From NCBI GenBank assembly GCA_903901855.1, contig CAIUSP010000058.1, positions 1 through 39,602 on the forward strand: a DNA stretch of 39,602 nucleotides. The letters run 5' to 3'. This stretch comes from an uncultured bacterium (GTDB lineage: Bacteria; Actinomycetota; Thermoleophilia; Solirubrobacterales; 70-9). Position numbers and translations under genes: made by a program. Below the pieces are notes generated by a model. It worked only from the letters and a program-made list of their open reading frames with translations, did no database searches and had not been told where the DNA came from. Below are positions 1,837 through 31,165 of this stretch, in pieces. Position 1 is the stretch's first letter. Each line of letters opens with the position of its first letter.

Positions 1837-3623
1837 AGAGGAATAAGGCACTCGCAGTCGGAGTGGCTTCCCTCTCGATCGTCGCGATGCTCGCGCTTGC
1901 GAGCTGCGGTGGATCGAGTGGAACGGCCACGACCGATTTCCCGCTCCCCACGGAGGCCCCGAGTGACGCCCAGAAGGGCGGAACCATCGAGGTACTTTCA
2001 GGGTCAGACATCGACTACATGGATCCGGGGGCGAGCTACTACCAGTTCACCTTCATGATCCATTACGCGATGTTCAGGCCGCTGCTGTCCTGGCCTCCCG
2101 GAGAGACCAAGACTCCCCAGCCGGACCTGGCAGCCGAACAGCCGACCATCAGCGATGACGGCAAGACGGTCACCTTCAAGATCCGGGAAGGCGTGAAGTT
2201 CGCTCCACCGGTCGATCGTGATGTGACCTCGGCGGACGTCAAGTACGCGATCGAGCGAGGGCTGATGCCGGGCGTCGCCAACGGCTACATCGGTGCGTAC
2301 ATGGACGGTCTGGACGGCTTCGACGCGGCGATCGAGTCCGTCGAAAGCGACCCTACGGTCGCACCCGATATTTCGGGAATCAAGACGCCAGACGATCAGA
2401 CGATCGTCTTCGAGTTGACCGATACGACCTCGGCGACACTCATCCAGGCACTCTCGCTTCCGGTCAGCGCACCGGTACCCGAGGAGTACGCCAAGCAGTA
2501 CGACTCAGAGAGCCCCTCGACCTACGGCGACCATGTCGCGGCAACGGGTCCGTACATGGTCGAAAACGATGCAAAGGGAGCTTTGACCGGCTACGAGCCC
2601 GGCAAGGAGATCCGCTTGGTTCGTAATCCCAATTGGGACTCCTCCAGCGACGCTCGCCCCGCCTATGCAGACCGGATAACGGTCAAGGAGGGGTATGCGG
2701 ACTCCGCCTCTGCATCGAGGCAGATCCTGACTGGCGAGGGCCAGGTCAACGGTGATTTCGGACCACCGCCCTCGGTCCTTCGCGAAGCGGCAACCAGGTA
2801 CAAGGAGCAGCTCTCACTGCCGACGAGCGGTGGCAGCAGGTACGTCTCGCTCAATACGCAGCTGGCACCGCTGGACGACCTCAATGTCCGTAAAGCAGTG
2901 CTCGCGGCGACCAACCGTGAGGCCCTGCGCCTGACGGCGGGCGGAGAAGCGGCTGGCGCGATCGCCAACCACTTCATCCCGCCTGACATCCCGGGATTCG
3001 AGGAGGCCGGTGGCTTCGACGGCACTGGAGCCGATTTCCTCGAGAAGCCTGCCGGGGATCTGGCGCTCGCTGCCGAGTACATGAAGAAGGCTGGCTACAA
3101 GTCGGGCAAGTACGACGGCAACGACGAGCTCCTGATGGTCGGAGACGACAGCGCCAGCAGCCGGCAGATCGGCGAGATCATGCTCGATACGTTCCAGAAG
3201 CTGGGATTCAAGGTCAACTACCGGCCTGTATCTCAGGAGATCATGTACACGAAGTTCTGCGGTACCCCAGCTGCCAAGGTCGCCATCTGCGCGACGACCG
3301 GTTGGCTGAAGGACTTCAATGACGCCGAGTCGCTGCTGGATCCGACGTTCAACGGGAACAACATCCTCCCGTCCAACAACGTCAACTGGCCTCAGCTCGA
3401 CGTCGAGTCGATCAACGATGCAATGGCCAAGGCAGCGTTGTTGACCGATCAGGACGAGCGCACCAAGGCCTGGGCGGATATCGACCGGCAGATCACCGCG
3501 CAGGCTCCGGCCTTGCCGTGGATCTGGGACAACTCACCGGTCATCTGGTCGGAGAACGTTGCACCGGTGATCAACCTGTTCAACGCCACGGCCGACCTCT
3601 CCTACACCTCACTGAAGAAGTAG
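1833..3623 (+). CDS. ABC transporter substrate-binding lipoprotein, family 5 (peptide/nickel type)
   Basis: This is a 596-residue extracytoplasmic receptor for the importer around it. The N-terminus has a lipoprotein signal with lipobox LASC and lipidated Cys25, then a Gly/Ser/Thr linker. The SBP_bac_5 fold is recognisable by a GGTIEVL start near residue 49, a PDLAAEQPTISDDGKTVTFKI segment near 98-118, FAPPVDRDVTSADVKYAIERG near 123-143, and the ATGPYMVE and DLNVRKAVLAATNREAL segments further on. Substrates in this family range from peptides to nickel and sugars and cannot be deduced here. A strong ribosome site (AAAGGAGG) precedes the ATG. It lies between the two permease genes, and a strong hairpin follows it, which may keep its transcript level above that of the membrane subunits. 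Confidence 0.94.
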   Translation: MKRNKALAVGVASLSIVAMLALASCGGSSGTATTDFPLPTEAPSDAQKGGTIEVLSGSDIDYMDPGASYYQFTFMIHYAMFRPLLSWPPGETKTPQPDLAAEQPTISDDGKTVTFKIREGVKFAPPVDRDVTSADVKYAIERGLMPGVANGYIGAYMDGLDGFDAAIESVESDPTVAPDISGIKTPDDQTIVFELTDTTSATLIQALSLPVSAPVPEEYAKQYDSESPSTYGDHVAATGPYMVENDAKGALTGYEPGKEIRLVRNPNWDSSSDARPAYADRITVKEGYADSASASRQILTGEGQVNGDFGPPPSVLREAATRYKEQLSLPTSGGSRYVSLNTQLAPLDDLNVRKAVLAATNREALRLTAGGEAAGAIANHFIPPDIPGFEEAGGFDGTGADFLEKPAGDLALAAEYMKKAGYKSGKYDGNDELLMVGDDSASSRQIGEIMLDTFQKLGFKVNYRPVSQEIMYTKFCGTPAAKVAICATTGWLKDFNDAESLLDPTFNGNNILPSNNVNWPQLDVESINDAMAKAALLTDQDERTKAWADIDRQITAQAPALPWIWDNSPVIWSENVAPVINLFNATADLSYTSLKK

Positions 3624-19670: not shown

Positions 19671-19701
19671 GGGCCAACTGCGGTAGCGGTTCTACCGGCC
19701 C
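19671..19701. terminator. Weak stem-loop in the gap between convergent genes
   Basis: CGGTAG (19681-19686) and CTACCG (19692-19697) form a 6-bp stem with loop CGGTT. GGGC at 19671 can pair with GCCC at 19698 around a bulge. It lies between two convergent stop codons, where a bidirectional terminator would be expected, but there is no U-run on either strand. Confidence 0.3.
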
Positions 19702-20204
19702 TAGAGCTTCTTGCCGTTTACTTCGGTGACGCGGACCATGGCTCGATGCCTCTCGCCATCACGAGGATCGCGAGCGATTCCCTTCACCTCATCGCCCGGG
19801 CGGAGCTTGCAGCGTCGGATCTGAGACGGTGAGATGTAGCTGTCCTGATCGCTCTTGGACCCCTTCTCCAGCCGGACGAAACCGTAGCCCTTCGGCATCC
19901 GATCGAAGGTACCCGAAACCTCGAAGCCTCCCTCGTCCTCGCTGCCACTCCTTCGGGAGGCGGCCTTGGCCCCTCTCGGGGGCTTCTTCGAGCCCTTCCC
20001 GCCCCCGAACAGGGCTGCGATGCGAGCGAGGAGTCCAGGGCCCCGCCTACCCCCCTTGCTCGAGCGGCGTTCTATCTCTGCGGCAAGCTCTTCCTTGCGC
20101 ATACCTCGAAAACCCTTGATCCCCAGATCCTGTGCCTGCGCGTGCAGTTGGGAGAGGTGAGGAAGTCTCTTGCTGGCGCCGGGGCGCTGATCAGTGGCTG
20201 GCAT
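19701..20204 (-). CDS. Rho N-terminal (RNA-binding) protein lacking the ATPase domain
   Basis: The protein has 167 residues in three parts. Residues about 15-48 match the Rho_N helical domain (LSQLHAQAQDLGIKGFRGMRKEELAAEIERR). Residues 49-88 form a basic, Gly/Lys/Arg-rich linker. Residues about 92-164 match the Rho cold-shock-like RNA-binding fold: FEVSGTFDRMPKGYGFVRL, then SYISPSQIRRCKLRPGDEVKG, then PRDGERHRAMVRVTEVNG. These are nearly the motifs of true Rho (GFGF, YVSPSQIRR, LRxGD, PPxxGERYxALxKVxxVN). The RecA-type helicase is absent and the reading frame ends naturally. It is likely a cytoplasmic RNA-binding protein related to Rho. Whether it binds Rho or competes for its RNA sites is unknown. 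Confidence 0.85.
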   Translation of the reverse strand: MPATDQRPGASKRLPHLSQLHAQAQDLGIKGFRGMRKEELAAEIERRSSKGGRRGPGLLARIAALFGGGKGSKKPPRGAKAASRRSGSEDEGGFEVSGTFDRMPKGYGFVRLEKGSKSDQDSYISPSQIRRCKLRPGDEVKGIARDPRDGERHRAMVRVTEVNGKKL

Positions 20205-20972: not shown

Positions 20973-22673
20973 CTACCTCTCCGCCCGGATGAGCGGATTG
21001 ATTCCCTCGCGGCGCGCCTCCTCGACCCAGGCCTCACGTTCCTCTGACTGGTGCTTCTTCGACCAGCCCAGTTCCCGGCCCATGAGCGCCGCAACCGGAG
21101 CAACCGACTCGGCGTCGTCGAGGTCCCGAGCGGCGATCAGCCCGAGTCGGGTCCGACGGAGGATCACATCACCGATGGTGCGGGCCTGCTCGTTCCGTGC
21201 CGCGATCACAACCTCTGCCATCAAGTCCGGGAAGCCCTCGATTATCGGCTCGGCCAGATCAGGTGTCTCGGAGCAGAGATCGAGCACCTCCCGCGCCCCG
21301 TGTCCGTATCGGAACGCCAACTGATCGACCGCCCCGTCGGGCAGGCTCAGATCGGTGTCGAGATCGCCCGGACGAGCGGGGAGCCCGAGCGGGATCTCAG
21401 CCGTCCTGCAGATTGCCGTCATGCCTTCGCGCTCGACTATCCGGTCGACGACCTGCTTGCCCATGCGACGCCAGGTCGTGTACTTGCCCCCGGTGATCGT
21501 CAGCATGCCCGACGATGTCTCGTACATCTCGGCCTTCCGCGATATATCGACGGACTTCCGGGAGTCGCCGGAGGAGATCAGGGGCCTCACCCCGGCGAAG
21601 GCACCGGTGACCCGGTCCAGTTCGATGTCGGTATCGAAGTAGGAGTTGACGGCGTTCAAGAGATACTCGACGTCGGACTCGCTCGGAGCCACCGAGTCGA
21701 TACTGCCGTCGTAGTCGTTGTCGGTGGTGCCGATCAGAGCCCTCCCGTACCAAGGCAAGGCGAAGATCCTCCGCTGCTCCCCAGCCGGAACGATGCATGC
21801 CGCCTCTCCGACGGGCAGGTCGTCGAGTGAGAGGATGATGTGCGTACCGCGGCTCGGCGAGATGACAGGCACCTCATCGAGATCGGTGGCTCCCTCGACT
21901 CCGATCCGATCCGCCCAGACGCCGGTCGCGTTGACTACGTTCCGTGCCCGTACCTCGATCCGGTCACCGGACTCTTCTTCCACGAAGGCCACACCGTCCG
22001 CTGTGCCCCGCTGCTCGAGGACCTCGACCACCCTCGCGCCATTGAGCAGTACCGCGCCGTAGCGTTCCGCTTCCTGCAATGCGGTGATGATCAGACGGGA
22101 GTCATCTGTCTGACAGTCGTAGAAGAGATAGGCGGATCTGGGCTCGAGAGGCGCAAGTGCGGGCATCATCCTGGACGCCTCTGCTCCGTCGATCGTCCGA
22201 TGCCTTTCGGGCGACCAGGATCTCGTGTGCTCGACCGCCGCTGCCAGGCTCGCGTTCTCGGCAGTGTCGACCTCCGGGTCCTCGCCGCGCGCGCGGACCG
22301 TTGCAAGGGCGTCGTAGGCATTGAGTCCGACCCCCAGGGCGAGGTCCCGGCGATCGTCGCCCAGCCGCGGTACCAGATACGGCGTCGGGTACACCTGATG
22401 CGGCGCAAGCTCGACCATCAGGCTGCGCTCCACGAGGGCCTCTCGGACCAGCCCTACATCGAAGTTCTCTAGGTACCGCAGACCGCCGTGGATCATCTTC
22501 GACGAACGCGACGAAGTGCCCTGTGAGTAGTCATCGCGCTCCAGCAGGACCACCGACATGCCCCTGGAGGCGGCATCCAGTGCCACCATCGTTCCCGTCG
22601 CCCCGCCGCCGATCACCGCGAGATCGAACTCACTCGAGTCGATGGCCGTCAACGCGTCTTTCCGAGAGATCAT
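20973..22673 (-). CDS. glpD: FAD-dependent glycerol-3-phosphate dehydrogenase
   Basis: Oxidises sn-glycerol-3-phosphate to dihydroxyacetone phosphate at the membrane and passes electrons to quinone. The 566-residue protein starts with an FAD-binding dinucleotide fold, AVIGGGATG (residues 19-27) and VVLLERDDYSQGTSSRSSKMIHGGLRYL (41-68), which is the GlpD signature. It has NATGVWADRIG in the middle and the C-terminal DAO_C helical domain. The ATG at 22673 is preceded by GGAGAGAGG. It lies 12 nt after the stop of the ECF S-component fusion gene, so it may be read from the cobalamin-regulated operon as well as from its own promoter. Confidence 0.95.
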   Translation of the reverse strand: MISRKDALTAIDSSEFDLAVIGGGATGTMVALDAASRGMSVVLLERDDYSQGTSSRSSKMIHGGLRYLENFDVGLVREALVERSLMVELAPHQVYPTPYLVPRLGDDRRDLALGVGLNAYDALATVRARGEDPEVDTAENASLAAAVEHTRSWSPERHRTIDGAEASRMMPALAPLEPRSAYLFYDCQTDDSRLIITALQEAERYGAVLLNGARVVEVLEQRGTADGVAFVEEESGDRIEVRARNVVNATGVWADRIGVEGATDLDEVPVISPSRGTHIILSLDDLPVGEAACIVPAGEQRRIFALPWYGRALIGTTDNDYDGSIDSVAPSESDVEYLLNAVNSYFDTDIELDRVTGAFAGVRPLISSGDSRKSVDISRKAEMYETSSGMLTITGGKYTTWRRMGKQVVDRIVEREGMTAICRTAEIPLGLPARPGDLDTDLSLPDGAVDQLAFRYGHGAREVLDLCSETPDLAEPIIEGFPDLMAEVVIAARNEQARTIGDVILRRTRLGLIAARDLDDAESVAPVAALMGRELGWSKKHQSEEREAWVEEARREGINPLIRAER

Positions 22674-22685
22674 CCTCTCTCCATC

Positions 22686-24572
22686 CTAGGACCTGATCGT
22701 GTCCCGAATCCTGACCCCGAGCCACGCTGAGCCGGCGACACAAATCGCTGCCAAAGCGACCGCCCACCACCAGCTACTGATCCACGAACCGGCAGTCGCG
22801 GACTGCACCGTGGCTCCTTCGGCCGGGACAGGGGTCTCGTCTGTCGCCGCAGGCCCTCCTCCGGTCGGCCCCGTGCCTGCCGCCTCTCCGCTGTTCACCG
22901 ACCGGTCCCCGGCAGCACCGCCACCTGCGCCCGCGGAACCTGCCGCCCTCCCGGACGCATCTCCAGGGGGTCCGGTGGATGACGGTGTACCGACAGCCTC
23001 GAGGGGAAACGGCTTTCCCGCCACCGCGACCAGAGCCTGCGCGGTGACCCAGACCGGTGTCTGATCAGACGAAGCCGAGTATCGGAAGTGGCCGTCACGA
23101 GCCTGCCGAGCCGCCAGATAGTCGGTGGGGGACCGCCCAGCCCGTCGCACCTGCTTCAGGGGCTGTCCTGCCGCCAGCAGTCCCTGAACGGCCCAAGCCG
23201 TGGATTGAGCGTTGGGGGCCGCTCCCGGTAGCCCCCAGCCCCCCTGTCGATGCTGGTTGCGCTTCAACCAGCTGGCCCCACGAGAGACTGCCCCCCGGCC
23301 AGCGTCCACCGCGACCAGCGCCTGGATTGCCGCACCGGTGCTGTCTGCATCGGGATTCACGCCGGTTCCGTACCCCCAACCGCCGCTGTTGGCCTGAGCA
23401 CGCCTGAGCCAGGCGATCGCCTTCGGGGACGCTTCCACATCCGCAGCGGCCAACGCGAGCAAGTAGAACGCTGTCAAGTTGACCTGACCGCCGAGGGAGC
23501 CATCCTGTCCGGCTCGAGCGCGAAGGCGCCTGATCGGCTGTACACCGCCGAACCGGCGAGGATCGAGTCCGCTTGCTGCCAATGCGAGGATCGTCCGCTC
23601 GAGGTCTCCCGTCGTCTCGATCTCGTCCGCACGAGTGCGCAGATAGTCGATGGCGCTCCTACCTGATCGGCTTCGCAGCGCGGTCGGATTGCGGCCTGCA
23701 GCAGCGATCGCCAGAGCAACCCAACCGGTGGTTGCTGTGTCTGACTCTCTTCGTGGAGCGAACCCGAACCCACCGTCCTGGTTCTGGGTGCGTCGCAGCC
23801 AATCGAGAGCCGAAGACGCACTGACACTGGCCTGGGCGCTCGGCTCGGACCGAGGTGATGGCTGTCCAGCCCGAGCCGCATCTCCGTCTGAGAGCAACCC
23901 AGCCGCAATAGCCAAAACCATGATCAGCGAGGCTGCACCGGCGCCGATCCGTGCGGCCGGTGTTTCTTCCCAGCGGTGTGTGAAGCGCCTGCGATGGCGC
24001 TCCAGCAAGCCGACGATGGCTGGACCCGCCACCAGCGCGATTGCGAAGTTACCGGCTGCATGCGCGAGGTTGAACGGGATACCCCTGACCGAGAGCGCCA
24101 GGTAGCGCTCTACCGACTGCTCGCCGCCGAACACGACCATGGCCGAGTAGTCGAGCAGCGCGCCGTAGAGCAGGCCCATCGCACCGCAAGCGAGAGCAAA
24201 CCCGAGCCTCCCCAGCCGCCGACCCGTGACGACCGCGAGACCGGCACCGAACAGTCCCGCCAGTCCCCATCCCGCCATCTGCCAAGGCGTCCATGGACCC
24301 TGACCCAACCAGAGGTTGGAGACCAGCGCCGAGAGTGCCCCGACCATGAACCCCGGTGCGCCACCGAGCGCGTAACCGGAGAAAACCGCCAGATCGGTGG
24401 TGGGTACGACGTTCGGGATCGGGGAGAAGATCACCCGTCCTGCGGCAGCGAGCGCCGCCATCGCTGCCACCAGCGCGATCACCTGCGGGCGAGGGCGTGA
24501 CCGCTCGTACCACAGCGCGCCGCCCACCAAGGCCCCCGCGAGGAGGAGCATCGAAGCTGCCTGCCAACTCAC
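22686..24572 (-). CDS. ECF transporter S-component fused to prenyltransferase-like alpha/alpha repeat domain
   Basis: The protein has 628 residues. Residues 1-200 are a polytopic S-component with about six hydrophobic segments and motifs GRVIFSPIPNVVPTTD (45-60), SGYALGGAPGFMVGALSALVSN (65-86) and QGPWTPWQMAGWGLAG (91-106), found in vitamin-type S-components. A further helix (about 208-228) leads to a repeat domain (252-525) with units such as LDWLRRTQNQDGGFGF, ATTGWVALAIAAAG, DSTGAAIQALVAVD and STAWAVQGLLAAG, which belong to the prenyltransferase/terpene-cyclase alpha/alpha-barrel superfamily. A Gly/Pro/Ala linker (527-595) and a final helix (597-620) follow. If the S-component ends in the cytoplasm, the repeats lie outside, tethered at both ends. 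No DxDD or DDxD catalytic motif is evident, so binding rather than catalysis is likely. GTG start, 4-nt overlap with ecfA. Confidence 0.88.
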   Translation of the reverse strand: MSWQAASMLLLAGALVGGALWYERSRPRPQVIALVAAMAALAAAGRVIFSPIPNVVPTTDLAVFSGYALGGAPGFMVGALSALVSNLWLGQGPWTPWQMAGWGLAGLFGAGLAVVTGRRLGRLGFALACGAMGLLYGALLDYSAMVVFGGEQSVERYLALSVRGIPFNLAHAAGNFAIALVAGPAIVGLLERHRRRFTHRWEETPAARIGAGAASLIMVLAIAAGLLSDGDAARAGQPSPRSEPSAQASVSASSALDWLRRTQNQDGGFGFAPRRESDTATTGWVALAIAAAGRNPTALRSRSGRSAIDYLRTRADEIETTGDLERTILALAASGLDPRRFGGVQPIRRLRARAGQDGSLGGQVNLTAFYLLALAAADVEASPKAIAWLRRAQANSGGWGYGTGVNPDADSTGAAIQALVAVDAGRGAVSRGASWLKRNQHRQGGWGLPGAAPNAQSTAWAVQGLLAAGQPLKQVRRAGRSPTDYLAARQARDGHFRYSASSDQTPVWVTAQALVAVAGKPFPLEAVGTPSSTGPPGDASGRAAGSAGAGGGAAGDRSVNSGEAAGTGPTGGGPAATDETPVPAEGATVQSATAGSWISSWWWAVALAAICVAGSAWLGVRIRDTIRS

Positions 24573-26263
24573 CGGAGGCCCTCCGGCGCGGTCGGGGATG
24601 ACGACCTGTCGTGCGTGGGAAGGAGATCCTCGGGCATGAGCGCTGCACCGTCTGTGAGACGGGAAACCTCGGTAGCGAAGTGAAGTCCGCTGGACAGCAC
24701 CTCCCTCACCGCACCGTCCGCGATAACGCGGCCGCGCGCCAGTAGTACTACGCGATCGGCGAAACCAGCCGCGAATTCGACGTCATGAGTCGCGATTAGT
24801 ACGGCGCAGCCCCTGCCAGAGATCTCGGTGGCCAGTCCCGCGAGATCGGCCTTCCGCCCACGGTCCATCCCGCGAGTAGGTTCATCGAGGAGGAGCGCGG
24901 ACGGCAGTGGATCGTCCGCCTCTGAGCGACCGGCAATGACCAACGCCACCGCAAGTCGCTGGCGCTCACCGCCACTGAGATCGCGAGGGTCCGCGTCCTC
25001 GAATCCCTCCAGCCCAACCGCGCGCAGCGCAGCATGCCCAGCCACGCCCGGGAGCTCGTCACCCACTCGCTCGCGCACGATCATGTCCGCAGGGCGCTGA
25101 GGGAGCATCGCGACCCCTCTTTCCCCACGCACCACGCGTCCCTCGGAGGACTCGATCAACTCCGCAGCCAGCCTCAGTAGGGTCGTCTTGCCCGCGCCGT
25201 TGGCCCCCATCAACGCCACACGCTCGCCTTGCAGCAGTTCCATGTCCAGTCCGCGGAGGGCCTCCACCTCGCCGCCTCCCTGGCCGAGTGACACCTCCAC
25301 TGCCCGTATCGACAGAGCAGTCTGGACTTGGGCTGCAGAGGGGTCGGAAGCCCCGGATGCGACCGTGGACCTGTCGGGCGAGTCCAGAGAGCACGCACCT
25401 GCAAGGGCCTGGCGGGCCTTGCGGCGAGATACGACTGCGCGTGACCCGACGGCACGAAGGGCATGTGCCCCGGGGGTCGCGAGATCCGGCTCCTCGTCCA
25501 GAGACCACTCGAGGAAATCGTCCGGATCGCCGTCGAAGGCGATGCGACCCGACCTCATCGCTATGGCCCTGTCCGCCCCCTCGAGGCATCGCTCGAGACG
25601 GTGTTCACAGCAGATAACCGCTACGCCGAACTCCTCGTTCAGCCGCCTCAACGCCCAGATCAGCCCCTCGGCAGCCACCGGATCCAACTGAGATGTGGCC
25701 TCGTCCAGCAGCAGCAAGGCTGGGCGCGTGACCATCGCCGCTGCGAGGGCGACCCGCTGCAGTTCACCGCCGGATAGGGTGCCCGTCTGACGGTCGAGCA
25801 GGTGGTCGATTCCCAATGCAAGCGCGATCTCTTCGACGGCTCGAGCGACCTCCCCCTCGCGTGCACCTCGCAGCTCCAGCGGCAGGCGCAGTTCCGCGAG
25901 GACAGTCGTACTGACCACCTGAGACTCCGGATCCTGAGCGACCAGGCCGACCTCGGTCGCGAGCTCCGCCGGGCCGTGATGCCTCACATCGTGGCCCGCG
26001 ACCTCGAGCGCCCCAGAGATATAGCCACCGTGGAAGTGCGGGACCAGACCGCAGGCAGCACGGAGAAGCGTGGTCTTGCCCGATCCCGAGAGCCCGGCGA
26101 GCACCACCATCTCCCCGCGAGCCACCTCGAGGTCGATCGACTTCAGGGCCAGTGGACCGTACTCGTCCTTGCCTGCTACCCCGGATGCGGCACCCACCCC
26201 CAACGGGTAGCGGTAATCCAGCTTGGAACACCTCAGCGCCGGAGAGTGTCCGGGGAGATTCAC
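24569..26263 (-). CDS. ecfA: ECF transporter energising ATPase, two fused ABC domains (EcfA-EcfA')
   Basis: A 564-residue fusion of the two cytoplasmic ATPases of an energy-coupling-factor importer. Domain 1 has Walker A GLSGSGKTT (57-65), Q-loop VAQDPESQ, signature LSGGE (163-167) and Walker B LLLLDE (183-188). Domain 2 has Walker A GANGAGKTT (353-361), Q-loop MLPQRP, signature LSGGE (429-433), Walker B LLLDEPTRGMD (457-467) and switch His493. About 70 residues of linker join them. The frame is open to 26458, but the GTG at 26263 overlaps the ecfT stop and has GAGGAGG upstream. With EcfT and the S-component it makes a complete dedicated (group I-like) ECF module. Confidence 0.93.
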   Translation of the reverse strand: MNLPGHSPALRCSKLDYRYPLGVGAASGVAGKDEYGPLALKSIDLEVARGEMVVLAGLSGSGKTTLLRAACGLVPHFHGGYISGALEVAGHDVRHHGPAELATEVGLVAQDPESQVVSTTVLAELRLPLELRGAREGEVARAVEEIALALGIDHLLDRQTGTLSGGELQRVALAAAMVTRPALLLLDEATSQLDPVAAEGLIWALRRLNEEFGVAVICCEHRLERCLEGADRAIAMRSGRIAFDGDPDDFLEWSLDEEPDLATPGAHALRAVGSRAVVSRRKARQALAGACSLDSPDRSTVASGASDPSAAQVQTALSIRAVEVSLGQGGGEVEALRGLDMELLQGERVALMGANGAGKTTLLRLAAELIESSEGRVVRGERGVAMLPQRPADMIVRERVGDELPGVAGHAALRAVGLEGFEDADPRDLSGGERQRLAVALVIAGRSEADDPLPSALLLDEPTRGMDRGRKADLAGLATEISGRGCAVLIATHDVEFAAGFADRVVLLARGRVIADGAVREVLSSGLHFATEVSRLTDGAALMPEDLLPTHDRSSSPTAPEGLR

Positions 26264-27183
26264 CTGTTCCACCTCCTCGCTCCGAGACCCCACGGAACGA
26301 GAGACAGAAGGGTCAGAAGAGGGATTGCGGCCGTGAGCAGGAGCGCCTGCCACGAGACCTCCATCGCCACCTCCGGATAGGACTCGAATCTGGCGAACCC
26401 CGCACCCAGCAGGAAACCGACGGCCACGGCAACTGCGCATCCCGAAACCAGAGGCCACAGACCATCCCCTGCGACGTTGCGGAGCGCCTCGCCGGTGCTG
26501 TTGCGTCGGCTCGGCCGCAGCGAGTGGCCGCGCAACTCGAGAGTCGCTGCCACCTCGACCGAGCGATCGAGCGAACCCGCTACGACACGACGTGCCAACT
26601 CGGCCTTGCCGACGGGAGCGGCGGCGGGGCCCCGGAGATCTACTCCTTCCTTCAACCGGGAGAAGTCAGCCGCTGCCACCGGCACCAGTCGCGACACCAG
26701 GGTCGCAGTGAGCGCCGAATGCCGGGCGACCGGTCGAAGCGCCGCGAGCACCCGGTCCGGATCCACACAGGCAGACCAGACCGCGAACAGGAGAGCGACC
26801 GAGATCACTCGCAGCGCGATCACGCCGCCTGCGGCCAGAGACTCGAGGGTGATCGTCCCACCGATGACAGGGATCTCAGGAGCCCGGAAGAGCACCGTCG
26901 CCCCCGCGTGGCTGATCAGACCGTTGACCACGATCATCAGGATCGCCAGCGGGATCGAGAATCGCAGAGCCTGACTCATGGCCGGCTTCGCGCCGCAAGC
27001 CCAGCCGAGTACCCACGCCGAAACCCCCGCCGAGGCGATCACCAATGGACTTCCTGCCGCCAGAGCGACCACCCCCAGCGCCACCAGAGGGGCGGCGGCT
27101 ACTGCGGGATGCGCTCGATGCAGCGGACTGGCCCCGGGGGTGAAGGCGAAGGCAGCAAGTGCCTGTTGGCGGGAATCACTCAC
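26260..27183 (-). CDS. ecfT: ECF transporter transmembrane coupling protein EcfT
   Basis: A 307-residue membrane protein linking the ATPases to the S-component. Hydrophobic segments lie at about residues 28-65, 72-92, 110-140 and near the C-terminus (240-300). The two cytoplasmic coupling motifs of the family are recognisable as DLRG (182-185) and ELRGHS (216-221), within the long amphipathic helices between LVSRLVPVAAADFSRLKEG and the last membrane part. These Arg-Gly motifs insert into the ATPase grooves. GTG start overlapping the stop of the DUF4430 lipoprotein gene (GTGA), and 4-nt overlap with ecfA. Its neighbours indicate a corrinoid transporter, not a cobalt CbiMNQO system, since no CbiM or CbiN is present. 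Confidence 0.9.
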   Translation of the reverse strand: MSDSRQQALAAFAFTPGASPLHRAHPAVAAAPLVALGVVALAAGSPLVIASAGVSAWVLGWACGAKPAMSQALRFSIPLAILMIVVNGLISHAGATVLFRAPEIPVIGGTITLESLAAGGVIALRVISVALLFAVWSACVDPDRVLAALRPVARHSALTATLVSRLVPVAAADFSRLKEGVDLRGPAAAPVGKAELARRVVAGSLDRSVEVAATLELRGHSLRPSRRNSTGEALRNVAGDGLWPLVSGCAVAVAVGFLLGAGFARFESYPEVAMEVSWQALLLTAAIPLLTLLSLVPWGLGARRWNR

Positions 27184-28097
27184 GGCCTCGGGACCCCCAC
27201 CGGCCGTGCCCCCTGATCCTCCGGATAGACCACCGCGTATCGATGCTCGAGATCAGGACCGAACAGACCGCTCGGCACGGAGTCCTCGTCCGCCCCGGTG
27301 ACGATCCAAGTGACTCGATCCGATCGGTCAGACAGCGCTGCCACCAGTCCCGCGCGGGAGGGACTACCGACCTCGCCACCCCGGGAGTCGAGCGGTTGCA
27401 GCAGCCAGCCTGTATCGGGAGCCGGGACGAAGCGCGCGTACACCCCACTCTCCGAGGGTCCCCTCGCCATGACCCGGACCTCCTCCTCATCACGCAGCCG
27501 ACTCCAGGGACCGATGAGCACGCGAAGCGAGGCGGTCTCCCCCTCGACCTTGGCGACCCGTGCCCCCGCTCGCTCCAGGTCTCGTACCACCCCGTCACAA
27601 CCGACAGGGCTCGCCATGAGGCACTCCACATCGACAGCGCCGGGGTGACCTTCGAACGGCTGCGGCCATGAGCCGACCACGGCGGGCACGTGCATCGTCA
27701 CGGACCAATCCCGTCTGTCCCACCAAATCGAATCTCCCGGCTCCACCTGGGCCTCGAGGGCCCCTACAGGCGATTCGGTGCCGTCGAGGTAGAAGAACCA
27801 GTCGACCGGCGACCCATCGGCGCTTCCCGCCGCAAACCCGTTGATCGACTCCACGAAACCTCCGCCGTAGGTGGTCTCGACCTGGTCGACAGACCGAGTC
27901 AGCAATCGCATCACGTCGTCCGAGTCGCGAACCGGCTGGGGCTCGTCGTACATCACGATCCTCCCGAAATCCCTGGTGACCGAGACCTCGGCATCTCCGC
28001 GCTCCTCGCCGGGACCGAAACCGCAACCGATGAGCAGGGCTGCCATCAGGAGCGAGCCGCCGACGCCGAGCGCAATCCGAAAACGAGAACCGCTCAC
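27180..28097 (-). CDS. DUF4430 (transcobalamin C-terminal-like) lipoprotein
   Basis: A 305-residue surface lipoprotein: lipobox LIGC with lipidated Cys25, then a DUF4430-type domain at about residues 37-130 (DDVMRLLTRSVDQVETTYGGGFVESINGF, then VDWFFYLDGTESPVGALEAQVEPGDSIWWD). DUF4430 is the small beta domain found as the C-terminal half of transcobalamin and intrinsic factor. Residues about 131-305 form a second domain I do not recognise, with Cys159 and Cys167 possibly bonded. The gene is second in the cobalamin-riboswitch operon, with GTGA overlaps on both sides. Likely role, inferred: capturing the corrinoid at the cell surface for the ECF transporter downstream. Confidence 0.82.
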   Translation of the reverse strand: MSGSRFRIALGVGGSLLMAALLIGCGFGPGEERGDAEVSVTRDFGRIVMYDEPQPVRDSDDVMRLLTRSVDQVETTYGGGFVESINGFAAGSADGSPVDWFFYLDGTESPVGALEAQVEPGDSIWWDRRDWSVTMHVPAVVGSWPQPFEGHPGAVDVECLMASPVGCDGVVRDLERAGARVAKVEGETASLRVLIGPWSRLRDEEEVRVMARGPSESGVYARFVPAPDTGWLLQPLDSRGGEVGSPSRAGLVAALSDRSDRVTWIVTGADEDSVPSGLFGPDLEHRYAVVYPEDQGARPVGVPRP

Positions 28098-28840
28098 CCC
28101 CTACGTACTTCCTCGCAGTCCTGGGCCACCGCGTCCCGCGAGTCGATGAAGGCGATGTCAGCTCCGCTCGAACAGCGCACCAGATCGCGGGCACCATCGC
28201 GTGCCAGTACACGATCGTCAGCGTTGGTACCGGTCACCGGGAACGCTCCTGGGGCACCCACCACCACTCGCCGCCCCTCCCTCGGCGCCGGCCCGGGGAT
28301 GCTCGTCGAGGGGTACTCCTCGGTCAGTTGGTAGACGACGGTCTGACCGCTCTTGACCCGGGCGTTATCGGCGCTCGTCTCGACGAAGGTGCCGCCTATC
28401 CAGACGGCCCAGTAGGCGAGCCCGGAGGCCTCCACCCCACCGATGCCACAGAGGGTGTGACCGAACGAGTAGTAGTCGCTCACCCGGAGCGGGCGCAGGA
28501 CTCCGAGTTCCGCCGCCGCGTCGGCCAGGACTCCCATTGCGTTTGGTCCGCGTACAGCGGTCGGTGCAAACCCACCGTCGCCACCGGTGCCCTCACCAAA
28601 ACAAAGTGCTTGCGGGGAGGTCCTCACTCTCATCGAGGAGGAGTGGACCACCGCGTCCACCATCTGACGACCCAGCCCGTCTACGACCCTGACCGGAACC
28701 CGAACCTGTTTGGCGAATGCGCTGGCGGGAGCGACTGCCAACGACATACAGGTCAGAGCTGCGACGATCGCCCCACCCAGGGCCAGGTACCTAAATGACG
28801 CTCTGTGGACGCAGGGCGTCCCCATCTCCGATCCATTCAT
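28094..28840 (-). CDS. Secreted DUF4430 (transcobalamin C-terminal-like) protein
   Basis: A 248-residue protein with a signal peptide (hydrophobic residues about 18-40, likely cleavage after AFA at 43). A DUF4430-type domain covers about 45-178: NAMGVLADAAAELGVLRPLRVSD, then FGHTLCGIGGVEASGLAYWAVWIGG, then ARVKSGQTVVYQLTEEYP. Cys80 and Cys131 may form a disulfide. The C-terminus (about 203-248) carries a short Asp-rich repeat (DDRVLARDGARDLVRCSSGAD, then FIDSRDAVAQDCEEV) of a kind common in secreted Thermoleophilia proteins. There is no lipobox or sorting motif, so it may be released. The ATG at 28840 has GGGGAGG 6 nt upstream; the longer open frame would run into the riboswitch. First gene of the B12 operon. 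Confidence 0.82.
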   Translation of the reverse strand: MNGSEMGTPCVHRASFRYLALGGAIVAALTCMSLAVAPASAFAKQVRVPVRVVDGLGRQMVDAVVHSSSMRVRTSPQALCFGEGTGGDGGFAPTAVRGPNAMGVLADAAAELGVLRPLRVSDYYSFGHTLCGIGGVEASGLAYWAVWIGGTFVETSADNARVKSGQTVVYQLTEEYPSTSIPGPAPREGRRVVVGAPGAFPVTGTNADDRVLARDGARDLVRCSSGADIAFIDSRDAVAQDCEEVRRG

Positions 28841-28842
28841 CT

Positions 28843-28890
28843 CTGCCTCCCCTTTCCTCGAGGGACTGATTGGCTTCTGGTCGGAGGCAG
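28843..28890 (-). promoter_or_regulatory. Possible expression-platform hairpin masking the ribosome site
   Basis: On the minus strand CTGCCTCC (28890-28883), part of the conserved 3' end of the riboswitch, is an exact reverse complement of GGAGGCAG (28850-28843), which contains the Shine-Dalgarno of the first gene. An 8-bp stem with a 32-nt loop could form only when the aptamer's 3' strand is not in use. The loop also contains CCTCGAGG. Function is inferred. Confidence 0.4.
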
Positions 28891-29072
28891 GTCTCCTGGC
28901 TCGGGATCGATCTCCATGCCTTCCCGGTCGCTCGTCGCTCCCAGTGGCTCTCATCTGGAGATCCCGGTCGAGAAACGACCGGAAAGCTTCCCTCACAGTG
29001 GCGGGACCGCGCAGGACTCACACCTGACTTCCCTAGGGCGCCCGTACCGGAAGCGACGCCGCAACCACCGAC
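28880..29072 (-). ncRNA. Cobalamin (adenosylcobalamin-type) riboswitch
   Basis: The minus strand carries the conserved blocks in order: a GTCGG closing strand at 29072-29068; AGGGAAG with GGTG and GAGTCC (29034-29012 region); GCGGTCCCGCCACTGTGA (B12 box with GCCACTG at 29002-28996); a second GCCACTGG at 28948-28941; GGGAAGGC; the invariant AGCCAGGAGACCTGCC at 28901-28886; and CCGAC at 28884-28880, pairing with GTCGG. This is an essentially complete class I cobalamin aptamer. It ends 40 nt before the ATG of the secreted DUF4430 gene. Cobalamin riboswitches normally lower expression of uptake or synthesis genes when the cofactor is plentiful. This strongly ties the downstream operon to cobalamin or a corrinoid precursor. 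I see no clear U-tract terminator, so control is probably translational. Confidence 0.96.
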
Positions 29073-29109
29073 TTATGTCGTTGGCGACTCTATCACAACG
29101 AGGAGGCGG

Positions 29110-29952
29110 TCAGACCGGAAAGCAGCGTGACCTCGCGGAGGCACCGAGGGAGCTGCCGTCCAGATAGGTGACTCGGCCATTCATGTCCAACATCCGATTG
29201 CGGTCAGCGCACCTCGCAGTGACGTAGCCACGGCCGTTGCCTCCGCCGATCTCGATCTCGAAATTGGTCAATGCCGCAAGCCCGTCGAGGAAGGTCGGGA
29301 CGGAGATGTCGAGGCGGTAGCCGAAGTCCTTGCCGCTGCGCGATGGCCGGATAGTGCCGAGAAGCGCCCCTCCGTAAGCCGCGCTCTCGACCCGCGCGAG
29401 TATGACCAGTTGCGGCCGCCCCGTTCCGGCCTCCGCGGGCCCCTTGAACGCCGTCAACTCCGTCGCGAGCTCCTCGTAGCCGTACGGGTGACTTTCATCC
29501 ACCGGCCAGGGAAAGCGAGCCACGGCGGCGCCAGTCCCGAGAACGGAATCCGGACAGCGGGCTATAGCCAACTGCGTGCTCAGGCTGTCGAGCCACTCCC
29601 GACGGCACACCTTCTGACGCGCAATCCTGCCGTTGAACACGAAGTCGTCGTCGAAATTGAAGCTGGCGAACACCGTGGGGCTGGGGATCTTGTTCGGCGC
29701 GGTCTCGTTCAGGGTCGTGGCGGTAATCGAGATGACGGCTGGCTTGCGCTTGTCGCGCTTCAACTTGGTCGGGGAGACCCCGACTCCGATCGTCTGAGTC
29801 TGAGCGGCCTGACCGGAGCCGGTCTTGACCACGAAGCAGGCAAGAGCAACCACTACCACGATCTTGACCCGCCTCTTGCGCCGCTCGCGTGGCGTGGGGG
29901 CTGCCGCAGGAGCGGCGAAGAACTCTCTGGACCTTTCGAGTAGTGCTTCCAT
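29110..29952 (-). CDS. Membrane-anchored extracellular protein, paralogue of its neighbour
   Basis: A 280-residue protein with a 28-residue N-terminus ending in RRKRRVK, a hydrophobic segment (about 29-44) that is either an anchor or a late signal peptide, and an extracellular domain. The domain resembles that of the next gene upstream: LSTQLAIARCPDSVLGTGAAV, ELTAFKG, VILARVESAAYGGALLGTI, DFGYRLDISVP and ALTNFEIEIGGGNGRGYVTARC each have counterparts there. Three or more conserved Cys suggest disulfides. I do not recognise a named family. It ends 38 nt before the riboswitch begins, so the B12 operon promoter probably overlaps its 3' end. A strong terminator separates it from the upstream paralogue. 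Confidence 0.72.
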   Translation of the reverse strand: MEALLERSREFFAAPAAAPTPRERRKRRVKIVVVVALACFVVKTGSGQAAQTQTIGVGVSPTKLKRDKRKPAVISITATTLNETAPNKIPSPTVFASFNFDDDFVFNGRIARQKVCRREWLDSLSTQLAIARCPDSVLGTGAAVARFPWPVDESHPYGYEELATELTAFKGPAEAGTGRPQLVILARVESAAYGGALLGTIRPSRSGKDFGYRLDISVPTFLDGLAALTNFEIEIGGGNGRGYVTARCADRNRMLDMNGRVTYLDGSSLGASARSRCFPV

Positions 29953-30106: not shown

Positions 30107-31027
30107 TCAGCCGCACTTCTTGTTGTCGACTGCCCTCTTGCCTGCTGGCAGGTAGCTGTCGGCGTTCGGATCGGCTCCTCCGCCTTCCTGGTCCTTGGCC
30201 GAGAAGTAGAACTTGCTCGAGGACTTGAAGGTCGGCTTGACGCACTTGGCCTGGATGAATCCGGCCTTGTAGCCGTTTCCGACCGTCAATTCGAACTCCG
30301 TCAGCGCGGTCGTACCACTTGCGAGAAGCGGGATGAACACATCCAGCATCTTGCCGTAGTCCGCACCTGAAGCCCAGCTCGGCTTGTTCACGAGGGTGCC
30401 GATCAGCGCCGACCCGGTACCCAGCGCCTCTGCGCGGGAGAACAGGATCACCGTCGGGTTGCCCGCTGTGTCGGTCTCACCGCGGAAAGCGGTAAGTTCG
30501 ACCTGAGTCGGCCCGAACGTCTCGTAGAAGCCAGGAACGCGAATACGGGCAACACCGCCGCCAACGATCGAGTTGGGGCAAGCCGCCTTGGCGAGTGCCG
30601 TGCTGAGGCCAGCAACAGCTGACTGCGCGCAGGGCGTTGCCTTGGTGACGTTGAACTTCAGGTTGCTCGAGAACACGACCTGGGCCCGGATTGCCGGATC
30701 GGGGATTCCCGTACCGGGATAGGACCCGTTACCAGTCGCCGTACGGAAGGTCATGGCGACGTTCTTCCATGCCTTCCTGGTGAGCAGCTTGCCGCTCGGC
30801 TTGGTGAAGCCACTGACGAAGCCGACCTCACCGTTGGGGCTTCCGGCCGGCTTGAACTTCGCAGTTCCGGTCGAGATGCCGACATAGCCGGCGGTCTGGT
30901 ACTTGCCCGTTGCCAACGGCACGTTCGGCGTCGGCTCGGGCGGTGAAGGAGCAGCCATGGCAATGCCGGTGAAGGCAAACAGGCCCAAGGCCGCACCTGC
31001 GGTTGCAAGAACTTTTCTTCTACGCAT
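30107..31027 (-). CDS. Secreted protein next to the Mce cluster, paralogue of its neighbour
   Basis: This is a 306-residue exported protein with a signal peptide at residues 1-25 (MRRRK, hydrophobic core, cleavage after AMA). The mature part is beta-rich with conserved landmarks LSTALAKAACPNSIVGGGVARIRVPG, ELTAFRGETD, TVILFSRAEALGTGSALIGTL, DYGKMLDVFIP and ALTEFELTVGNGYKAGFIQAKC, all mirrored in the gene at 29110-29952. It has a few Cys that may pair. The family is not one I can name. The ATG at 31027 has GGTAGGAAT upstream. It lies 138 nt downstream of the last Mce gene on the same strand but has its own candidate promoter and terminator, so it is probably a separate unit. A cell-envelope role is a guess from location only. 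Confidence 0.75.
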   Translation of the reverse strand: MRRRKVLATAGAALGLFAFTGIAMAAPSPPEPTPNVPLATGKYQTAGYVGISTGTAKFKPAGSPNGEVGFVSGFTKPSGKLLTRKAWKNVAMTFRTATGNGSYPGTGIPDPAIRAQVVFSSNLKFNVTKATPCAQSAVAGLSTALAKAACPNSIVGGGVARIRVPGFYETFGPTQVELTAFRGETDTAGNPTVILFSRAEALGTGSALIGTLVNKPSWASGADYGKMLDVFIPLLASGTTALTEFELTVGNGYKAGFIQAKCVKPTFKSSSKFYFSAKDQEGGGADPNADSYLPAGKRAVDNKKCG

Positions 31028-31095
31028 CAGATTCCTACCTCTCCTGTCGTTTTCAGGACCCCTCTGGGATCCCTGTCTACTGCATGAAACACCAT

Positions 31096-31120
31096 TGAGT
31101 GACGGTGCGCACTCAGTATA
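31096..31120 (-). promoter_or_regulatory. Candidate -10 box with overlapping inverted repeat
   Basis: TATACT lies at 31120-31115 on the minus strand, a strong -10 match, about 90 nt upstream of the start codon at 31027. No good -35 is seen. An inverted repeat, TGAGTG (31096-31101) and CACTCA (31110-31115), lies immediately downstream and shares one base with the -10 box, so it is either an operator or a 5' hairpin of the transcript. Confidence 0.4.
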
Positions 31121-31165
31121 AACCCGCACACCTCGGATAGTTGCGGTCGCCTGCGAGGTTGGTCG

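What the first reader, a model, noticed from the sequence alone, without database searches (positions are those of the whole stretch)
22686..29072. Cobalamin-riboswitch operon encoding a split, transcobalamin-like capture system joined to an ECF importer
Seen: a near-complete B12 riboswitch followed by five genes with 4-nt overlaps: secreted DUF4430 protein, DUF4430 lipoprotein, EcfT, double EcfA, and an S-component fused to prenyltransferase-like alpha/alpha repeats. Known: animal intrinsic factor and transcobalamin pair an alpha6/alpha6 barrel with a small beta domain of the DUF4430 family and clamp cobalamin between them. Inference: the operon holds both halves of such a clamp on separate surface proteins, so the barrel on the transporter and the DUF4430 proteins may close on the corrinoid and hand it to the membrane S-component. 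This would be a bacterial counterpart of intrinsic factor built into an importer.
Basis: partly seen in the sequence, partly recalled or inferred. Interest (0 to 1): 0.92.

Follow-up and report, generated by a model that had tools for sequence, protein, structure and literature searches.

The report
Vitamin B12 importer with fused barrel
A bacterium that seems unable to make vitamin B12 carries a B12-controlled set of five genes for an importer whose outer parts are predicted to resemble the two halves of our own B12-carrying proteins, an arrangement already proposed for bacteria but here with one half joined to the importer itself.

Summary
A full-length cobalamin riboswitch (28869-29084, minus strand) precedes five genes, each overlapping the next by 4 nt: secreted DUF4430-like protein, DUF4430 lipoprotein, EcfT, double EcfA, and an S-component fused to an alpha/alpha toroid. 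The S-component is homologous to CbrT of the biochemically tested B12 transporter ECF-CbrT (6FNP, E 8e-14). The lipoprotein model hits the transcobalamin beta domain first in the PDB; the toroid model matches terpene cyclases best, transcobalamin at rank 19. The 92%-complete genome has one B12 riboswitch, a methylmalonyl-CoA mutase and a cobalamin adenosyltransferase but no CbiC, so B12 import is very likely. In 299 genomes of the class, 169 of 176 with a match to either half of the fused protein have DUF4430, against 19 of 123 without. The core idea is not new: Burroughs et al. 2007 proposed B12 scavenging by DUF4430-type domains and toroids in CbiO/CbiQ operons. Not found in my ten searches is the S-component-toroid fusion, present in 26 of 80 named loci. 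Related genomes encode the two as overlapping genes, and the fusion keeps an internal signal-peptide-like stretch, so it may be cut. Clamping and hand-off remain inference.

The parts
28869..29084 (-). cobalamin riboswitch (RF00174), full-length aptamer
   Evidence: 75.9 bits, E 4e-17, model 1-189/189; the only one found in the genome
28094..28840 (-). g1: secreted protein with a divergent DUF4430-like domain
   Evidence: Pfam sub-threshold E 0.096 and 0.072; hhalign 92.6% to the g2 family; same-place proteins in L036 and L042 pass Pfam
27180..28097 (-). g2: lipoprotein (lipobox LLIGC, Cys25, by eye) with DUF4430 / transcobalamin-beta-like domain and a C-terminal domain of unknown kind
   Evidence: Pfam E 1.9e-9; AF2 pLDDT 87.8; Foldseek best hit 5no0, human transcobalamin beta domain, 4.3e-5
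27717..27896 (-). DUF4430 domain of g2
   Evidence: 41.4 bits
27183..27692 (-). C-terminal domain of g2, about aa 136-305, no family found
   Evidence: well folded in the model, no Pfam or relevant PDB match of its own
26260..27183 (-). g3: EcfT (CbiQ family) transmembrane coupling protein
   Evidence: Pfam PF02361 30.7 bits, cut-off 25
24569..26263 (-). g4: two EcfA ATPases in one polypeptide
   Evidence: Pfam ABC_tran 8e-46, two stretches; best NCBIfam matches are energy-coupling factor ATPases, below their cut-offs; start by 4-nt overlap
22686..24572 (-). g5: S-component fused to alpha/alpha toroid, 628 aa
23973..24497 (-). g5 aa 26-200: CbrT-like S-component core
   Evidence: phmmer to 6fnp_A 8.2e-14; profile 1.6e-22
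23865..23960 (-). g5 aa 205-236: internal transmembrane / signal-peptide-like stretch followed by A-x-A
   Evidence: suggestive only
23013..23819 (-). g5 aa 252-520: alpha6/alpha6 toroid (12 helices)
22692..22784 (-). g5 aa 597-627: C-terminal transmembrane helix

Best explanation
This is the B12 (corrinoid) importer of an actinobacterium, by its named kin a member of or close to Solirubrobacterales, that seems unable to make the corrin ring; the riboswitch lets it be made when B12 is scarce. Well supported: EcfT, the double EcfA and the CbrT-like S-component form an ECF importer for cobalamin. Supported by fold only: the lipoprotein g2 (and probably secreted g1) offers a transcobalamin-beta-like DUF4430 domain on the outer face of the membrane, and the toroid of g5 sits on the same face, anchored by a helix on each side. 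Inferred: g2 and the toroid hold the corrinoid between them, as the two halves of transcobalamin do, and pass it to the S-component below, which topples and releases it inside under ATP. Also inferred: the toroid may be cut from the S-component at an internal signal-peptide site, so that the fusion may serve to make both in equal amounts.
For: Riboswitch. S-component homologous over its core to 6FNP chain A; 6FNP is ECF-CbrT, whose purified complex takes up Cbl and cobinamide and whose CbrT binds CN-Cbl at about 9 nM (passages of PMC5997447). g2 model: the 19 best Foldseek hits are transcobalamin, haptocorrin, intrinsic factor and both chains of 3u7z (deposited as a putative metal-binding protein); the next hit has E 0.075. 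g5 model: 12-helix toroid with pLDDT above 90, transcobalamin 7qbe E 2.2e-4. Genome: CbiC in 0 of 28 genomes of its family in the class sample, methylmalonyl-CoA mutase, adenosyltransferase, no FecCD/BtuC over cut-off. Riboswitch before the operon in 23 of 24 named Thermoleophilia-type loci with DNA upstream of g2, 9 of 9 further class loci with that DNA, and 21 of 49 other named loci. Adenosyltransferase gene divergent beside the operon in 15 of the 24, plus one weak contig-edge match. DUF4430 in 169 of 176 genomes with a g5 match vs 19 of 123 others. Toroid in one frame with S in 26 of 80 named loci and with DUF4430 in 7 of 80, which ties the three together. Charges put the toroid outside.
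Against: No binding data and no complex model. The toroid is closer in sequence and Foldseek rank to terpene cyclases. CbrT binds B12 tightly alone, so a capture clamp is not required by chemistry. 7 of 176 genomes with a g5 match lack DUF4430, and 22 of 176 have CbiC. Genome counts are not corrected for kinship. The assembly is incomplete, so an absent gene may be missed.
Confidence: 0.6

Rival explanations
1. B12 is imported by the CbrT-like ECF transporter, and DUF4430 proteins bind B12 outside, but the toroid is an enzyme or a scaffold (terpene-cyclase-like or wall-binding), not one half of a B12 clamp.
For: Profile and Foldseek put terpene cyclases first (7xr7 E 6.4e-36 by profile, 3.1e-7 by fold). 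D410 is invariant in both alignments in a D-x-D context like that of cyclase catalytic acids (motif recalled, alignment to it not tested).
Against: The window protein reads D-A-D-S at 408-411, not the full recalled D-x-D-D. The toroid travels with DUF4430 and the B12 importer, and in 7 of 80 loci is in one frame with DUF4430, the architecture for which Burroughs et al. proposed joint B12 binding.
Confidence: 0.22
2. The operon imports cobalt or another small solute; CbiQ-like and CbiO-like parts are those of cobalt importers.
For: EcfT is named CbiQ, cobalt transport protein, in Pfam.
Against: The S-component matches the B12 S-component CbrT and no CbiM match is listed for g5. No CbiC was found in the genome, so cobalt is not evidently needed there for corrin ring synthesis.
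Confidence: 0.05
3. The g5 ORF is not a working fusion: an internal signal peptide is always cut, so S-component and toroid act as separate proteins, as in related genomes, and the fusion has no mechanistic meaning beyond co-translation.
For: In L118, L119, L122 and L124 the toroid gene can start in a 4-nt overlap with the S gene (10 nt in L116 and L117) and begins with what reads as a signal peptide. In the fusions the same stretch is internal and followed by A-x-A in 35 of 36 proteins, against a mean of 29.3 (maximum 34) in 1000 shuffles.
Against: The proteins are rich in alanine: A-x-A also follows another helix in 28 of 36, so the site is only suggestive. No cleavage data.
Confidence: 0.35

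Closest known systems
SLBB (transcobalamin-like clade, DUF4430) plus alpha/alpha toroid operons with CbiO and CbiQ, Burroughs et al. 2007 (PMC1796856)
   Same: Secreted DUF4430-type proteins, often with a second paralogue, toroid domain, CbiO-like ATPase, CbiQ-like membrane protein, proposed to scavenge B12 (abstract, passages and section 7 part 1 read).
   Different: There the toroid is fused to the SLBB domain in surface proteins; here it is fused to the S-component and DUF4430 sits on separate proteins. The parts I read do not mention an S-component.
ECF-CbrT of Lactobacillus delbrueckii (6FNP, PMC5997447)
   Same: Homologous S-component core, EcfT and two EcfA; B12 substrate.
   Different: CbrT (182-aa chain) has no toroid; the passages read mention no extracellular DUF4430 partner, and the S-component itself is described as the binding protein.
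Animal intrinsic factor, transcobalamin, haptocorrin
   Same: Barrel plus DUF4430-like beta domain; g2 model matches the beta domain, g5 model matches transcobalamin at rank 19.
   Different: One chain in animals, two or three in this operon; no PF01122 match; toroid nearer to terpene cyclases.
SCO2321-type cluster (NCBIfam NF053823), over cut-off in 7 of 198 genomes of the phylum, all of one unnamed genus (presumably Streptomyces, recalled)
   Same: Toroid protein, EcfT, double EcfA and S-component related to g5 in one cluster.
   Different: Toroid and S-component separate; no DUF4430 and no B12 riboswitch at threshold in the 16 kb of L132 and L133.

Membership tests
ECF transporter for B12 (CbrT type) | S-component homologous to CbrT | tested here: met
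   6fnp_A, E 1.6e-22 (profile), 8.2e-14 (single sequence)
ECF transporter for B12 (CbrT type) | EcfT and two EcfA domains beside the S-component | tested here: met
ECF transporter for B12 (CbrT type) | cobalamin binding and ATP-driven uptake | not testable with these tools
   needs protein or uptake assays
DUF4430 / transcobalamin-like SLBB | Pfam PF14478 above cut-off | tested here: met
   g2 38.3 bits, cut-off 23.8; g1 not met (13.6 and 14.0 bits)
[quoted passage not shown]
   g2 model: strands 32-42, 47-57, helix 62-71, strands 75-78, 81-85, then 91-93, 96-104, 123-130, my reading of the hairpin; Foldseek to transcobalamin beta domain. A predicted model only.
Intrinsic factor / transcobalamin family (PF01122) | PF01122 sequence match in the barrel | tested here: not met
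   no PF01122 listed at E 0.1 or better for g5; accession recalled
Intrinsic factor / transcobalamin family (PF01122) | barrel and beta domain in one chain | tested here: not met
   barrel in g5, DUF4430 in g2 and probably g1
Intrinsic factor / transcobalamin family (PF01122) | alpha6/alpha6 barrel fold | tested here: met
   12 helices 252-518; 7qbe E 2.2e-4; predicted model
Class II terpene cyclase | full D-x-D-D motif (recalled) | tested here: not met
   D408-A-D410-S411 in the window protein; only D410 of these is invariant

The most novel reading that the evidence does not exclude
This would be the first ECF importer with dedicated extracellular capture proteins: a toroid on the S-component and a DUF4430 lipoprotein close on a corrinoid like the two halves of intrinsic factor and load it into the membrane subunit. 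The S-component and toroid would be made as one polyprotein, cut at an internal signal peptide that descends from the start of a once separate gene.
Probability: 0.35. Interest if true: 0.82.

Novelty: new variant of a known kind. Interest (0 to 1): 0.56.

Why it matters
In ECF importers the membrane S-component is described as acting as the binding protein (passage of PMC5997447). A conserved set in which that subunit is joined to what looks like half of an intrinsic-factor-like clamp makes a 2007 prediction directly testable and gives a natural model for how a two-domain B12 carrier could load an importer. It also bears on the origin of the animal B12 carriers, which Burroughs et al. [quoted passage not shown]

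Tried and rejected
Rejected: (a) a DUF4430-EcfT-EcfA fusion in L040, suggested by one 1232-aa frame: EcfT lies in another frame (2546-3316), so the long frame is open by chance in GC-rich DNA. (b) A strong claim for the internal A-x-A site: shuffles favour it, but a control helix has A-x-A in 28 of 36 proteins (others 0, 1 and 9 of 36) and 71 of 194 linker windows have it, so it is kept as suggestive. (c) Cobalt import: see rivals. (d) PF07685 (GATase_3) as a salvage-pathway marker: four matches in the own genome, ambiguous family, not used. (e) Naming g1 a full DUF4430 member: below cut-off.

Led nowhere: profile search of g2 against the PDB (3 unrelated hits at E 0.55 or worse); of g1 (best 3u7z_A, E 0.063); promoter and terminator scan (no promoter-like site; 3 terminator-like sites against 1.8 expected); paper search for SCO2321 (one paper, listing only, on peptide delivery); a six-term search for the whole set (0 papers).

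Rows dropped or unequal: of 31 named Thermoleophilia-type loci (L033-L062, L065; my sorting, by titles and tree), 7 (L034, L046, L048, L050, L051, L055, L056) end before the region upstream of g2 and were left out of the riboswitch count. Of the other 24, L033 and L035-L042 were scanned directly (L042 without a match) and 15 were mapped from whole-genome hits by coordinates and checked for the GCCACTG and GGGAA motifs. Of 10 class loci fetched, L116 starts inside EcfT; the other 9 all have a riboswitch before the DUF4430 genes. Of 49 other named loci, 40 were scanned directly and 9 only; 21 have a match upstream of the first recognised operon gene on its strand (L063, L066, L067, L068, L071, L073, L076, L079, L082, L085-L088, L090, L091, L095, L097, L099, L103, L107, L111; the weakest 36.0, 38.8 and 40.1 bits); L080 falls below threshold; L081, L092, L104 and L109 have one elsewhere; the rest, among them archaeal L070, L074 and L098, have none, some on short contigs. 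The tree left out three loci whose contigs end inside the gene (L058, L060, L061).
Full report
What is there. On the minus strand, a full-length cobalamin riboswitch (28869-29084; 75.9 bits) is followed by five genes joined by four 4-nt overlaps: g1 28094-28840, g2 27180-28097, g3 26260-27183, g4 24569-26263, g5 22686-24572. The window is contig 58 of a 1.66-Mb, 91.9%-complete assembly; this is the only B12 riboswitch and the only DUF4430 match found in it.

The importer. g3 is EcfT and g4 a double EcfA. The decisive piece is g5 aa 26-200: a single-sequence search finds 6fnp_A at 8.2e-14, a profile at 1.6e-22. The paper that deposited 6FNP says it is ECF-CbrT, a transporter for cobalamin and cobinamide (passages of PMC5997447; the prediction is credited there to Rodionov et al. 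2009, which I did not see). So the substrate rests on homology to a tested protein as well as on the riboswitch.

The outer parts. AlphaFold2 gives g5 a mean pLDDT of 81.6, with twelve helices between 252 and 518 above 90, i.e. six helix pairs. Foldseek ranks drimenyl diphosphate synthase and squalene-hopene cyclases first and transcobalamin (7qbe) at rank 19, E 2.2e-4; intrinsic factor is not among the 50 listed. The sequence profile also finds cyclases and, at E 0.01, no transcobalamin. g2 (pLDDT 87.8) hits the human transcobalamin beta domain first (5no0, 4.3e-5), then its cyanocobalamin complex, haptocorrin, whole transcobalamins, 3u7z and intrinsic factor; the next hit is at 0.075. g1 is only a likely DUF4430 relative. 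Helices on both sides of the toroid and the charge pattern (K+R of 2, 3, 5 and 2 in the loops that would be inside) place it outside the cell.

The organism's need. In the class sample its family has CbiC in 0 of 28 genomes, while 23 of those 28 have a g5 match. The own genome has a methylmalonyl-CoA mutase (PF01642 1.2e-99), a cobalamin adenosyltransferase and no FecCD-type permease over cut-off (one weak match). It looks like a B12 user that must import.

How general. In 299 genomes of the class, 176 have a match to g5 (either half counts, and outside the order the halves are often separate frames) and 188 have DUF4430; 169 of the 176 have DUF4430 against 19 of the 123 without (Fisher 4e-51, not corrected for kinship). 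CbiC is found in 22 of 176 against 37 of 123 (p 2e-4). Of 80 named loci (the best 80 of 321 confirmed), I sort 31 as Thermoleophilia-type. In 24 of these the region upstream of g2 is held, and 23 have the riboswitch there in the operon's direction (L042 has none at Rfam's threshold). Nine of nine further class loci with that DNA have it, and 21 of the 49 other named loci. A cobalamin adenosyltransferase gene stands divergently beside the operon in 15 of the 24, plus one weak match at a contig edge, though not in the window.

Fusions. S and toroid share one reading frame in 26 of 80 named loci. On a 90-row tree the 27 fused rows (window included) need 5 changes against 23.5 in shuffles, and starred branches force at least 3, so the fusion is clustered in Solirubrobacterales-type genomes but not shown to be one clean event. 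In 7 of 80 loci, all labelled Bacillota in the tree, toroid and DUF4430 share a frame, and in 26 EcfA and S do. That the toroid is joined to DUF4430 in some lineages and to S in others is the best indirect argument that the three touch.

A possible polyprotein. In L118, L119, L122 and L124 the toroid gene can start in a 4-nt overlap with the S gene (10 nt in L116 and L117) and begins with what reads as a signal peptide. The fused proteins keep a hydrophobic stretch and A-x-A in the same place (35 of 36; shuffle mean 29.3, maximum 34), but controls show that A-x-A is common in these proteins. I hold it as a lead: the fusion may be cut into S-component and toroid.

What is known. Burroughs et al. 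2007 (PMC1796856; abstract, passages and section 7 part 1 of 2 seen) described DUF4430-type SLBB domains fused to toroids, often with a second paralogue, generally in operons with CbiO and CbiQ, in bacteria that usually lack key B12 synthesis enzymes, and proposed B12 scavenging and transfer of the pair to animals. I found no description of an S-component-toroid fusion in ten searches of the open library (listings, with passages of four papers read); most subscription papers are not in it.

Verdict. B12 import: about 0.93. Clamp of toroid and DUF4430 that loads the S-component: about 0.55, by fold and context only. A new variant of a known kind, worth a bench test because the outer parts are separate soluble domains that can be assayed one by one.

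Noticed in passing
[quoted passage not shown] profile matches follow DUF4430 in Bacillota (L071, L075) and archaeal (L070, L098) loci too.
   Followed up: partly
L064, L076, L077, L079, L112 and others: In 26 of 80 named loci, mostly titled as Clostridia and kin, EcfA and the S-component share one open frame.
   Followed up: partly
L036, L040, L042-L045, L047, L052-L054, L057-L061, L122, upstream side of the operon: A cobalamin adenosyltransferase gene (PF01923 3.2e-62 for L036) lies divergently next to the operon; in the window's genome it is on another contig.
   Followed up: yes
L120:5471-5666: A second B12 riboswitch stands between the S gene and a further DUF4430-like plus toroid stretch, as if the surface part were a separate B12-controlled unit.
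   Followed up: partly
L048:2411-3955: The S-component frame ends after the signal-like stretch and the toroid continues in another frame: assembly error or real frameshift, not resolved.
   Followed up: partly
L036, L051: Contigs titled Bifidobacterium breve and Chlamydiae carry Solirubrobacterales-type S-components in the tree, so the titles are probably wrong.
   Followed up: partly
19701-20204 (-): A 167-aa protein with Rho_N and Rho RNA-binding domains; no Rho ATPase half is apparent by eye in the neighbouring frames.
   Followed up: partly
29110-29952 and 30107-31129 (-): Two neighbouring proteins, similar in plan by eye, without a Pfam match above cut-off, upstream of the operon beside an MlaD/Mce gene.
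   Followed up: no
28094-28250 (-): The C-terminal end of g1 resembles short Asp-rich repeats by eye; the equivalent protein in L033 has a sub-threshold RTX calcium-binding match.
   Followed up: no
20973-22673 (-): A glycerol-3-phosphate dehydrogenase gene starts 12 nt after the operon on the same strand and may be co-transcribed.
   Followed up: no
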